IMG/VR virus record: IMGVR_UViG_3300020395_000006
Coordinates: 1 to 64,000 of that record
Strand: one strand, 5' to 3'
DNA length: 64,000 bases
Source of the DNA: a virus
The notes below the pieces were generated by a model, which had not been told where the DNA came from, searched no databases, and saw only the letters and a program-made list of their open reading frames with translations. Below are positions 6,296 to 56,658 of this stretch, one piece after another (position 1 is the first letter of the stretch; each line of letters opens with the position of its first letter). A program made the position numbers and the translations under genes.

Positions 6296-6315
6296 GTTAT
6301 ACTCATTATAGTCAC
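6296..6315 (-). promoter_or_regulatory. early-type promoter for the endonuclease-methyltransferase pair
   Basis: The minus strand reads TGACTATAATGAGTATAAC, identical over 19 bases to 1171-1189. A TTGATT lies 16 bases before the TATAAT and may act as -35. The ATG at 6281 follows 15 bases later. Confidence 0.6.
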
Positions 6316-6363
6316 TATTATATCATAATCAATGAAATTATACCAGTATAAAAATTGGCATAA

Positions 6364-6390
6364 GAAAACCTACCGTATAGGTAGGTTTCT
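6364..6390 (-). terminator. terminator-like hairpin
   Basis: The minus strand reads AAACCTACC-TATAC-GGTAGGTTT then TCTTATG. Nine perfect base pairs and a short U-rich tail. It follows the KTSC gene and separates it from the endonuclease promoter. The rest of 6316-6441 holds no frame. Confidence 0.6.
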
Positions 6391-6441
6391 TGCGAGATTA
6401 TGCGAAGTTCAAAATATTCAGTTGTCTTTGTTGCAGTTAGA

Positions 6442-6705
6442 TTATACTGCTTGTAGTTGACCTTCCTTTCTGTATGAAGCGATCAATCTACCTACACTCT
6501 CACCTTTTGCAAGAGCGTTTTCTAGTCCAGTGCGAACTAGGTTAGCATCTTTTGCTAAGAATCCGTACTCCTTATCAGCAGAAGTAAATGTCACACCAAC
6601 TGCATTGTCAGTACCAAAAGATACAGCAGCGATAGAGGATGACTTAGGGAAACGCATAATCATAATAAAGTAATGGAACATGCCTAGTTTATAGTCATAC
6701 GACAT
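6442..6705 (-). CDS. KTSC-like small protein
   Basis: 87 residues. The segment KSSSIAAVSFGTDNAVGVTF followed by a hydrophobic YGFLAKDANLV and a C-terminal helix GESVGRLIASYR matches the layout of the KTSC domain (a short fold resembling the C-terminus of some lysyl-tRNA synthetases). Function of KTSC proteins is not settled. The start is uncertain: ATGs at 6705, 6681, 6663 and 6657 are in frame, none with a clear Shine-Dalgarno; the domain itself needs only the last. The gene begins 10 bases after a cloverleaf-like RNA element, so it may be on the same transcript. Confidence 0.6.
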   Translation of the reverse strand: MSYDYKLGMFHYFIMIMRFPKSSSIAAVSFGTDNAVGVTFTSADKEYGFLAKDANLVRTGLENALAKGESVGRLIASYRKEGQLQAV

Positions 6706-6713
6706 GACTTGAA

Positions 6714-6777
6714 TTACACTATCAGAGAATTGAACTCTATCAACTGTTCGATCAAGACAGACTCACCAGAGTAGTGC
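6714..6777 (-). other. tRNA-like cloverleaf element at the 3' end of the noncoding RNA
   Basis: Read on the minus strand: GCACUA pairs with UAGUGU (acceptor-like, six pairs with one G-U); CUC-UGGU-GAG is a minimal D-arm; CUGU and ACAG enclose a nine-base loop with GAU in the middle; AGAG-UUCAAUU-CUCU is a T-arm whose seven-base loop fits the tRNA T-loop consensus at every position. Total about 63 bases, too short for a normal tRNA, and no CCA is encoded. It is either a degenerate tRNA or a tRNA-like domain of the large RNA. Confidence 0.45.
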
Positions 6778-7337
6778 ATGAAGTAGCATGGTCAAGAGGT
6801 GCTTCACCTGATCCTAACCCATTTACTGAGTCTAATTACAGGTACTAACTCACGCTACAAATGTATGATAGTCGATTTAGTGTCAGTTTCAATAATGAAT
6901 GTGACACTAAATCAACCGTCACAAGAAGAAATGGGAGTGGGGCATCAACATAGGTTTCACCTATATGCCCAAATTTACCTCATGGGAATCGCTTACACCT
7001 GAACCCCTACTAAACAACAAGTAACCATATAAGGAGTGTACGTGGCAGATGTCTGACCGAATAGGATTTCTCCGACAGTCTCAGGGATGCCAACGTATGC
7101 CATATCCAAAATGATTGAACCCTTGTTAGAGTTCGGGCATGAGAACCACATATCCCAGACGGACTTACACCATGAGTTTTTAGAACCTCACCCTAATGGA
7201 GTTTTGGTACTATGGATGCCAAATGCGAGGAGTCAGTGCATTACCCAACATCATATCTAAGATTTACAGGACTTACAACAATAAGAGCAAATCGTTGATG
7301 TACGCCTGATGTCCTAGTAGTTGTGAACCTCGCTCAT
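6715..7337 (-). ncRNA. large structured noncoding RNA (about 620 nt), family unknown
   Basis: This stretch has no credible frame on either strand, which is exceptional in this tightly packed genome. A perfect sigma-70 promoter lies just upstream on the minus strand. Many helices can be read directly: GCGAGG 7333-7328 with CCTCGC 7230-7225; AGGAC 7315-7311 with GTCCT 7272-7268, enclosing CAACGAT/ATTGTTG; GAACTC/GGGTTC 7134-7117; GACTG/CGGTC 7080-7055 with a GGA-GAAA-TCC tetraloop hairpin inside; a hairpin 6970-6940 closed by GGGCAT/ATGCCC; a perfect 12-bp stem 6913-6902 with 6885-6874; GTAGCGTG 6858-6851 with CATGCTAC 6790-6783. A cloverleaf-like element ends it. Size, phage context and a neighbouring tRNA-like element recall the large ornate RNAs ROOL and GOLLD, but I cannot assign it to either. 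The 3' end is inferred. Confidence 0.7.
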
Positions 7338-7498
7338 GTACCTATTATAGTCGGTTGACTTTGGTTGTCAAGTAATGTCAGGACATCCTGATAATCTTCA
7401 GAATTGATCCCTATCATCATCTCATAATAGGTAGCATAATCAATACCTAACTTTCTGGCATATAATTCATGGTCTAAATGGTTGAATTCCTTGTCCAT
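7334..7498 (-). CDS. small hypothetical protein (54 aa)
   Basis: ATG at 7498, TGA at 7334-7336. Begins MDKEFNHLDHELYARKLGID and ends SQPTIIGT. The hydrophilic helix-rich sequence looks coding. Its last 13 codons contain the complete -35 and -10 boxes of the noncoding RNA promoter, so coding and promoter functions overlap. No family recognised. Confidence 0.5.
   Translation of the reverse strand: MDKEFNHLDHELYARKLGIDYATYYEMMIGINSEDYQDVLTLLDNQSQPTIIGT
7344..7371 (-). promoter_or_regulatory. consensus sigma-70 promoter of the large noncoding RNA
   Basis: On the minus strand TTGACA (7371-7366), 16 bases, TATAAT (7349-7344). Both hexamers match the sigma-70 consensus exactly. The start point would be near 7337, three bases before the stop of the small gene that contains it. 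An identical TTGACA-16-TATAAT arrangement occurs at 56130-56157. Confidence 0.75.
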
Positions 7499-7527
7499 GA
7501 TTAGTTTGGTATCGTTGAATACTAAGT

Positions 7528-8646
7528 CTATGTATTAGACTTAGTATTTACATCATCATCAAGTTTAGAGTATAGTTGCATGAATGATGTTTTAGTCTCA
7601 TCATCAAATCGGTTGAGACACATTTCTAATGCTTTCATCTTATCACCAAATATTTGATATGCTCGCATAATGTGAACAAGTCTTCTAGTTGAGATAATTT
7701 CATCTATACCTCCATCATTGAAAGTTTTGCGAACAATATCCGCCCAGTCAGTTAGGTAAACAATGAATTTTTCATGGTCACCAGTCATAGGAATACCAAT
7801 AGATTCACATAACTTTCTGAGTATCTTGTTCTCAGTAGCAGCAGTAGGATATTCTTGCTCAAATGTAATAGGGAATCGCTCTAAGAACGCTTCATTCAAT
7901 ACATTAGTGCCAATGAAACGTCCATCATCACTACCTTTACCTTTAGTGTTAGCAGTAGCAATGACATTGAACCCATTAGCAGGTTTGATGTACTCACCTA
8001 TCTTCTTTAGGAAGATCCCTTTGCCCTCTAGAATCGGTTGTAAGCATAGTATTTTGTTAGATGCTAGATCAATCTCATCTAGTAATAAGATCGCTCCACG
8101 CTCCAATGCTTCAATGACTGCCCCATTATGCCAAACAGTCTGACCATTGACAAGTCTAAATCCACCTATCAAATCATCTTCATCAGTCTCAACAGTTATG
8201 TTGACTCTAATAAGTTCTCTGTTTAGTTGTGAACATGCTTGCTCTACTCCAAAAGTCTTACCATTACCTGACATACCAGTAATGAATGTAGGATAGAATT
8301 CTCTTGAAGCAATTACTTTCTTGAGTGAAGTAAAGTTGCCAAAAGGAATAAATGTATTATCCTTACTAGGTACTAAATTCTGTGACTCAGTTTGAGTCTT
8401 TTGAAGTTTAGTATTAGTTGGAGTTGGAGTTGCTTGATAGGTAGCAGTTGGAATCTCCTTCTCAGGATCTTGAATATTCCACTTACCCCTGCTAACCTTC
8501 CACTGGTTCAGGTACTTAGTAATAGTCTGATAAGATACATCAGGATTCTTAGCAACATACTCTTTGACCATATCAGCATTTAGTTCTGTACCAAATTGCG
8601 ATTTGATAGAGTCAAGGTGTGGTTGAAAATTGATTGTTCTAGGCAT
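7528..8646 (-). CDS. cobS: CobS-like MoxR-type AAA+ ATPase
   Basis: ATPase related to the CobS subunit of aerobic cobaltochelatase, which inserts cobalt during vitamin B12 synthesis together with CobT and CobN. Walker A (GMSGNGKT) is at residues 124-131 and Walker B (ILLLDEID) at 186-193; an arginine-rich sensor region follows near 325 (STRRLVHIM). Residues 1-60 form a small N-terminal helical domain (DVSYQTITKYLNQWKVSRG), then a Pro/Thr-rich linker. cobS is carried by most T4-like cyanophages. Here it lies directly downstream of a CobT-like gene, 82 bases apart, so the two probably form a MoxR/vWA pair. Whether the phage protein acts in B12 synthesis or in remodelling another complex is not decided by sequence. 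Confidence 0.85.
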   Translation of the reverse strand: MPRTINFQPHLDSIKSQFGTELNADMVKEYVAKNPDVSYQTITKYLNQWKVSRGKWNIQDPEKEIPTATYQATPTPTNTKLQKTQTESQNLVPSKDNTFIPFGNFTSLKKVIASREFYPTFITGMSGNGKTFGVEQACSQLNRELIRVNITVETDEDDLIGGFRLVNGQTVWHNGAVIEALERGAILLLDEIDLASNKILCLQPILEGKGIFLKKIGEYIKPANGFNVIATANTKGKGSDDGRFIGTNVLNEAFLERFPITFEQEYPTAATENKILRKLCESIGIPMTGDHEKFIVYLTDWADIVRKTFNDGGIDEIISTRRLVHIMRAYQIFGDKMKALEMCLNRFDDETKTSFMQLYSKLDDDVNTKSNT

Positions 8647-55977: not shown

Positions 55978-56128
55978 GTTTTTTTAATGCCTTTACAGAA
56001 CGCTTTAACTTTAGTCCCCTCTTTGCCTCTTTGAGTGCAGTCTTCATATAGTGAATTTCGGTAGGAGTATATAGGGACTTTTCTTTCAGAGCGTTTTTGA
56101 TAAGGCGAATCGTTTCTTTGAATTTCAT
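55946..56128 (-). CDS. small basic helical protein (60 aa)
   Basis: MKFKETIRLIKNALKEKSL then YTPTEIHYMKTALKEAKRG; basic helices, ending in KALKKHESKISNTDS. The ATG at 56128 is the likely start, but it is only one base after a perfect -10 box, so transcripts from that promoter would lack it. The frame is open upstream to 56203 and a start there would place the promoter inside the coding sequence. It overlaps thyX by 32 bases. Function unknown. Confidence 0.55.
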   Translation of the reverse strand: MKFKETIRLIKNALKEKSLYTPTEIHYMKTALKEAKRGLKLKRSVKALKKHESKISNTDS

Positions 56129-56538: not shown

Positions 56539-56569
56539 TGGTTTCTCCAAAGGTAGGGTTTTTAGTCCC

Positions 56570-56658
56570 CGTTCCTTCAGTCGGCTTTTGCGTCCCATTT
56601 GGGATGAACGATTCCGTTCCGAGTCGGCTTACTTGCGACCTCTTCTGAGGTTGAACGT
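56570..56658 (-). promoter_or_regulatory. tandem glutamine-riboswitch-like RNA element (glnA / Downstream-peptide type)
   Basis: Two related units lie on the minus strand. Unit 1 (56658-56615): CGTTCAACC, AGAA, GGTCGCAAGTAAGCCGACT, GGAACG. Unit 2 (56610-56570): CGTTCATCC, CAAAT, GGGACGCAAAAGCCGACTG, AAGGAACG. Each has a CGTTC/GAACG closing stem, a short CC..GG hairpin and the GACGCAAGTA-like core typical of the glutamine-binding glnA and Downstream-peptide RNAs. A 6-bp hairpin GGTATG-CTAA-CATACC precedes them (56677-56662). Downstream, the ribosome site is in a TTGG-AGAAA-CCAA hairpin. Ligand not tested here. Confidence 0.8.

What the first reader, a model, noticed from the sequence alone, without database searches (positions are those of the whole stretch)
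6715..7337. About 620-nt structured noncoding RNA with a perfect sigma-70 promoter
No gene-like frame on either strand in a genome where nearly everything codes; TTGACA-16-TATAAT upstream on the minus strand; at least nine helices readable by eye, including a 12-bp perfect stem and a GNRA hairpin. Size and phage setting recall ROOL and GOLLD RNAs. If it belongs to neither, it is a new large RNA class in cyanophages.
Basis: partly seen in the sequence, partly recalled or inferred. Interest (0 to 1): 0.92.

Follow-up and report, generated by a model that had tools for sequence, protein, structure and literature searches.

The report
Nested modular structured RNA of cyanophages
The stretch is a long untranslated RNA leader built from interchangeable folded RNA modules that viruses of marine cyanobacteria swap and nest inside one another; covariation shows the folds are real, no known RNA family matches them, and what the RNA does has still to be tested.

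Summary
In detail: a perfect sigma-70 promoter, no convincing coding frame, strong RNA structure, no Rfam match. It is not one 620-nt RNA but a mosaic of separate structured modules, followed without a terminator by an 87-aa gene. The central module (D core, about 115 nt when compact) covaries strongly: 19 of 31 pairs change on both sides in 47 sequences, 96.7% of cells pair. In 124 distinct copies its apical loop is closed (34) or holds one of about 46 kinds of insert of 35-231 nt; close relatives with about 95-99% identical flanks differ by a clean insert swap. The window copy carries a nested insert of about 130 nt. Module E also covaries and occurs elsewhere in other orders or alone. D is in P-SSM2, P-SSM5 and at least 119 IMG/VR stretches, one strong match per genome in 11 records, beside many different genes; bacterial genomes gave only chance hits. 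A companion module (M, not in the window) is a pseudoknot ending in a hexamer that varies but stays self-complementary in 104 of 106 copies, a signature of RNA-RNA dimerisation known from OLE and GOLLD. Best reading: a leader-encoded stable RNA acting in trans, as scaffold or decoy. Structure is shown; function is inferred.

The parts
7344..7371 (-). Promoter TTGACA-16-TATAAT; inferred start of transcription about 7337
   Evidence: exact match, 0.06 expected per window
7257..7317 (-). Module A (GGCGUACAUCAACGAUUUGCUCUUAUUGUUGUAAGUCC) closed by the variable stem CUAGGA.../...UCUUAG
   Evidence: same core in S-SSM7, S-SSM6a, MED4-213 and a dozen IMG/VR loci, alone or in other orders
7161..7220 (-). 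Second A-like frame, GGCAUCCAU...AUGGUGUAAGUCC
   Evidence: same GGC(A/G)U...GUAAGNCC signature as module A; single-sequence reading, weaker
6932..7159 (-). D core: P1 UGGG(AUAU)GUGG/CCAC(U)CCCA, P2 CUCAUG/CAUGAG, invariant strand GGUUCAGGUGUAAGCGAUUCC, joining GUAAAUUU, P4 GGGCA/UGCCC, with a nested insert in the apical slot
   Evidence: covariation in 47 sequences; model R1 hit E=9.9e-21 at 6926-7037 for the 3' half, 5' half at 7128-7167 (E=0.6, split off by the insert)
7008..7134 (-). Nested insert in the D slot: socket GAA...AGUA, frame C (AACAAGGGUUCAAUCAUUUUGGAUA...CUCCUUAUAUGGUUACUUGUU) holding frame N (GGCAUCCCUGAGACUG...GUCAGACAUCUGCC) holding a small hairpin
   Evidence: L033 and L055 have the same C(N) nest with a different innermost element; 85% identical there
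6871..6916 (-). Private long hairpin GUUGAUUUAGUGUCA...UGACACUAAAUCGAC
   Evidence: no recurrence noticed in related loci
6780..6860 (-). Module E: closing stem GUAGCGUG/CAUGCUAC, GUACCUG/CAGGUG, inner cap element L, invariant GUGAAGCACCUCUUGA
   Evidence: covariation in 20 sequences, model R2 E=1.7e-24
6715..6778 (-). tRNA-like 3' end: 7-bp acceptor-like stem UGCACUA/UAGUGUA, anticodon-like arm UGUCUUGAUCGAACAG, T-arm UAGAG-UUCAAUU-CUCUG
   Evidence: direct reading; ARAGORN and Rfam at E<=10 do not see it, so weak
6442..6705 (-). 87-aa ORF downstream of the RNA (PHROG 4357, unknown function), conserved as a 74-aa ORF at the same place in L036 and L069
6367..6387 (-). Hairpin AACCUACC-UAUA-CGGUAGGUU followed by UUCUUAU, probable terminator of the unit
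   Evidence: direct reading; not reported by the strict terminator scan

Best explanation
The window holds one copy of an undescribed, modular structured-RNA locus of T4-like cyanophages. SHOWN by covariation and comparison: a conserved three-way-junction core (D) whose apical loop is an exchangeable socket for other folded RNA modules, flanked by further separate modules (A, E; elsewhere M, K, G, T). SHOWN by sequence: a perfect sigma-70 promoter in front and, in many relatives, a -10 box ending 5-6 nt before the first stem, so that the RNA 5' end would be sealed in P1. INFERRED: the locus is transcribed as the 5' part of a short mRNA, AU-rich linkers between modules are cut by a host nuclease such as RNase E, and the released compact RNAs act in trans, as stable scaffolds or decoys that bind a host RNA-handling or translation component and in some phages form dimers through module M. 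Swapping of inserts would tune which host molecule is bound.
For: D structure: 96.7% of cells paired, 19 of 31 pairs with changes on both sides, 0 of 500 shuffles as high on cells paired, on pairs or cells changed on both sides, or on the covariation score; slid controls 36-57% paired; RNAalifold predicts essentially the same helices unaided. E: 95.9% paired, 9 of 16 pairs changed on both sides. Exchangeable slot: 124 distinct D, 34 closed, 90 with inserts of 35-231 nt in 46 clusters, 52 of them with a GAA/AGUA socket; swaps between near-identical flanks, e.g. L041/L054 99%/95%, L042/L056 94.5%/97%, L071/L160 97%/94%. One strong D match in each of 11 records including the complete P-SSM2 genome, with more than 12 families of downstream gene: argues for an RNA with a function of its own rather than control of one gene. 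A -10 box of at least 5/6 within 22 nt of P1 in 74 of 127 versus 22 of 127 in a control stretch. The modules are the only DNA shared with P-SSM2 over 8 kb at megablast level. M: pseudoknot helices kept, hexamer exactly self-complementary in 104 of 106 with seven different palindromes, the other two self-complementary around one extra base.
Against: No transcript, processing site or partner is shown. There is no terminator between the RNA and the next ORF, and the RNA lies on the same strand as that ORF, as a cis leader would. Module M is not in the window, so dimerisation cannot be claimed for this copy. The D set was fetched by D motifs, so only the copy number per record, not the frequency among phages, is unbiased.
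Confidence: 0.45

Rival explanations
1. Cis-acting 5' leader that protects phage mRNA. P1 seals the 5' end and the compact fold blocks RNase E or 5' exonuclease entry, or aids translation of the ORF behind it. Modules are swapped because any compact fold will do.
For: The start of transcription appears to coincide with P1 in many copies; ORFs often begin 20-35 nt after the last module without a terminator; a cyanophage factor raises host RNase E during infection (PMC9692554, abstract).
Against: One strong D match per genome record while other genes lack it; an invariant 20-nt strand is more than a roadblock needs; some copies are followed by a separate promoter before the next gene (L018, L024); in the window D is not at the 5' end.
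Confidence: 0.3
2. RNA-level counter-defence as a specific case: tRNA-like ends, pseudoknots and swapped loops mimic the targets of host RNA-cutting toxins or nucleases, and swaps reflect an arms race.
For: Very high turnover of inserts in near-identical flanks; tRNA-like arms here and in module T; pseudoknot M.
Against: No matching host defence system was identified; the invariant core is not explained.
Confidence: 0.12
3. Riboswitch or other ligand-sensing leader with D as the aptamer.
For: Conserved junction core with variable stems and an apical slot, lying in leaders; cyanophages do carry glutamine riboswitches and manA, wcaG and PhotoRC-II motifs (PMC2864571; PMC10665884).
Against: Downstream genes fall into more than 12 unrelated families, mostly of unknown function; no expression platform seen between D and the ORF; one strong match per record.
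Confidence: 0.08
4. Selection acts on DNA, not RNA: conserved recombination hot spots or protein sites whose stems are cruciforms.
For: The slot is an active exchange site; the M hexamer is a DNA palindrome.
Against: G-U pairs and asymmetric single-stranded invariant strands fit RNA; modules lie in the sense of the flanking genes in most loci; the hexamer switches between seven palindromes, which one protein would hardly read.
Confidence: 0.05

Closest known systems
GOLLD and ROOL RNAs (phage and prophage large ornate RNAs)
   Same: Large phage-encoded structured RNA of unknown function; companion module M has a self-complementary contact that switches between palindromes, the same kind of evidence used for OLE L9.3 and GOLLD L21a (PMC12286853).
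   Different: No Rfam match to any family; no fixed overall architecture; modules are nested and exchanged; no tRNA found in the window.
manA, wcaG, PhotoRC-II motifs and glutamine riboswitch of cyanophages
   Same: Structured RNAs in cyanophage intergenic regions and potential leaders (PMC2864571).
   Different: None of these models matches the D, A, E or M loci scanned; D has no consistent gene partner.
T4 stable RNAs rnaC and rnaD (species 1 and 2 RNA)
   Same: Short stable structured phage RNAs, whose function is unknown to my knowledge; rnaC ends in a tRNA-like T-arm, rnaD carries a GGUCGCUACC hairpin and GUAAGUC, resembling pieces of modules M and A by eye.
   Different: Models R1 (E<=10), R2 and R3 (E<=5) find nothing in the T4 region; T4 has no nested swapping known to me.

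Membership tests
ROOL, GOLLD, OLE, HEARO, tmRNA, RNase P (Rfam) | Match to the family covariance model | tested here: not met
   cmscan of the window at gathering score, of 6300-7600 at E<=5, and of eight homologous loci at gathering score: no match
ROOL/GOLLD-like RNA assemblies | Symmetric intermolecular contact shown by covarying palindromes | tested here: inconclusive
   Met for companion module M (104 of 106), but M is absent from the window
ROOL/GOLLD-like RNA assemblies | Neighbourhood of a tRNA island (often, not always, present) | tested here: not met
   No tRNA found in the 64-kb window by ARAGORN
ROOL/GOLLD-like RNA assemblies | RNA-only multimer in vitro | not testable with these tools
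   needs cryo-EM or mass photometry
Riboswitch | Coherent class of downstream genes | tested here: not met
   more than 12 unrelated downstream families
Riboswitch | Ligand-dependent structural change | not testable with these tools
   needs in-line probing
tRNA or tmRNA | Recognition by ARAGORN or the Rfam models | tested here: not met
   although a tRNA-like fold can be read at 6715-6778
T4 rnaC/rnaD | Sequence and structure homology to the modules | tested here: not met
   R1 at E<=10, R2 and R3 at E<=5 against the T4 region: nothing

The most novel reading that the evidence does not exclude
Cyanophages carry a combinatorial RNA system: an invariant RNA core with a standard socket that accepts dozens of interchangeable, self-folding RNA cassettes, nested up to several levels, exchanged by recombination, and in some phages joined into dimers through variable palindromes, giving each phage its own custom-built large RNA machine.
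Probability: 0.4. Interest if true: 0.92.

Novelty: new variant of a known kind. Interest (0 to 1): 0.8.

Why it matters
Protein domains are known to be shuffled; to my knowledge no natural RNA is known in which one fixed socket accepts about 46 different folded inserts, with near-isogenic swaps visible between phages. The modules are common in uncultured marine cyanophages, viruses of very abundant photosynthetic cells, yet Rfam lacks them, probably because few isolates carry them. They offer natural sets of interchangeable RNA parts and a direct test of whether phages use large trans-acting RNAs during infection.

Tried and rejected
Rfam at relaxed E-value gave only chance matches. The z-score of the fold (-1.76) is weak and was not used as proof. 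ARAGORN with a lowered threshold gave 3006 hits, pure noise. A riboswitch reading failed on the variety of downstream genes. A cis partner for the M palindrome was looked for: the own hexamer is not enriched within 1.5 kb. The D 17-mer in bacterial and archaeal genomes gave 15 scattered matches in unrelated taxa, where about 30 are expected by chance (257 billion bases, both strands, 4^17). T4 rnaC/rnaD homology was not found. My first regular expression for the enlarged M set was wrong and found one copy; one search replaces it. The pair count for M contains one stray pair (columns 40-44), to be ignored.

Full report
WHAT IS THERE. The window is part of a 68,264-base IMG/VR virus record. Its CobS-like gene is closest to marine single-cell virus and cyanophage genes. 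On the minus strand a perfect sigma-70 promoter at 7371-7344 (0.06 expected per window) precedes about 620 nt without convincing frames, then an 87-aa ORF (PHROG 4357), then a hairpin at 6387-6367. So the RNA is, at least formally, the long 5' part of a short transcription unit.

NOT ONE RNA BUT MODULES. blastn found only short blocks in P-SSM2, P-SSM5, S-SSM7 and single-cell marine viruses, none annotated as a gene. In IMG/VR the blocks recur in other orders (E before D in L036, L053 and L069, which share the gene neighbourhood of the window), alone (A in S-SSM7), or far apart. Over 8 kb, the DNA similarity to P-SSM2 at megablast level lies only in these modules.

THE D CORE. 47 compact copies were aligned. 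P1a, P1b, P2, P3, P4 and P5 all hold: 96.7% of cells pair, 19 of 31 pairs have changes on both sides, and slid controls reach at most 57%. RNAalifold gives essentially the same helices without guidance. P2 exists in about ten versions with matching partners. Nearly invariant single strands are GGUUCAGGUGUAAGCGAUUCC and GUAAAUUU; the P4 hairpin ends in the invariant GGUGAAACC. Part of this invariance reflects the exact words used to fetch the loci. Model R1 finds the window copy (E 9.9e-21), one strong match in each of 11 records including the whole P-SSM2 genome, and nothing in S-SSM7. One contig, L092, has two D copies.

THE SLOT. In 124 distinct copies the apical hairpin is closed in 34 and holds an insert of 35-231 nt in 90. 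The inserts fall into 46 clusters, mostly entered through one of two junctions, GAA/AGUA (52, resembling a loop E motif) or AAA/GUGGUGG (28). Pairs of phages with 400-nt flanks about 95-99% identical on both sides differ by the insert. The window insert is nested: frame C holds frame N holds a hairpin; L033 and L055 have the same nest with another innermost element. Module E has such a slot too, with a minimal loop, element L or longer caps, and itself covaries (95.9% paired).

WHERE IT SITS. D copies mostly lie in the sense of the flanking genes, next to more than 12 families of genes. In 74 of 127 a -10 box of at least 5/6 lies within 22 nt of P1, most often ending 5-6 nt before it, against 22 of 127 in a control stretch; 40 of the 74 have the extended TG. 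Upstream terminators are common, and a terminator after the RNA was not seen in the stretches read. The core 17-mer in 257 billion bases of bacterial and archaeal genomes gives only chance-level hits, while the viral scan stopped at its limit with 119 stretches.

MODULE M. A companion module, absent from the window, is a pseudoknot (GAGG/CCUC; GGAUGU/ACAUCC) with a covarying hairpin and a 3' hexamer. In 106 distinct copies the hexamer is an exact palindrome in 104: GCTAGC, CACGTG, CTATAG, CCTAGG, CCATGG, TCTAGA or AGATCT. The other two, CCTTAGG and CCATTGG, are self-complementary around one extra base. Pair counts confirm it (helix 4 there is a typing slip). Neighbouring bases of one chain cannot pair with each other, so this supports pairing between two molecules, an argument made for OLE and GOLLD (PMC12286853).

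HOW IT PROBABLY WORKS. Shown: structure, exchangeable slot, promoter geometry, one strong match per record. Inferred: transcription as a leader, release of stable RNAs at AU-rich linkers, action in trans as scaffold or decoy, dimerisation where M is present. I give 0.45 to this, 0.3 to a protective cis leader, and less to counter-defence decoys as a specific case, a riboswitch, and DNA-level readings.

KNOWN OR NEW. All of Rfam 15 and the papers found give CfrI, the glutamine riboswitch, manA, wcaG and PhotoRC-II for cyanophages; none is this. T4 rnaC/rnaD are analogous stable phage RNAs but not detectable homologues. I call it a new variant of a known kind (large phage RNAs of unknown function); the socket-and-cassette design may deserve more.

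Noticed in passing
window 56566-56612 (-): Glutamine riboswitch (RF01739, 37 bits), a known cyanophage element; a second perfect sigma-70 promoter lies at 56157-56130 (-).
   Followed up: no
M module in 106 distinct copies, e.g. L086 (P-SSM2 56037-56097), L036:1379-1436: Pseudoknot RNA ending in a hexamer that changes between seven palindromes but stays self-complementary.
   Followed up: yes
L013, L081, L089 downstream of D: Module T, tRNA-like: acceptor-like GCCCUUG/UAAGGGC and T-arm GUGG/CCAC or GGGG/CCUC around UUCAAUU, with a long insert in the variable region.
   Followed up: partly
L012, L014, L020, L060, L072, L074 after D: Module K, CUGCUG-stem-UCCCUUUGGUAGUUUCA-stem-GAGGCGAUAGGAAACUAC, with a clearly varying paired stem.
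   Followed up: partly
window 7334-7498 (-): 54-aa ORF after CobS overlaps the promoter; no PHROGs match. A 64-aa ORF sits at about the same place in L036 and L069; whether it is a gene is unclear.
   Followed up: partly
L276:1900-2260 (T4 rnaC, rnaD): T4 stable RNAs share by eye a UCGCUACC hairpin and GUAAGUC with modules M and A; no statistical support.
   Followed up: partly
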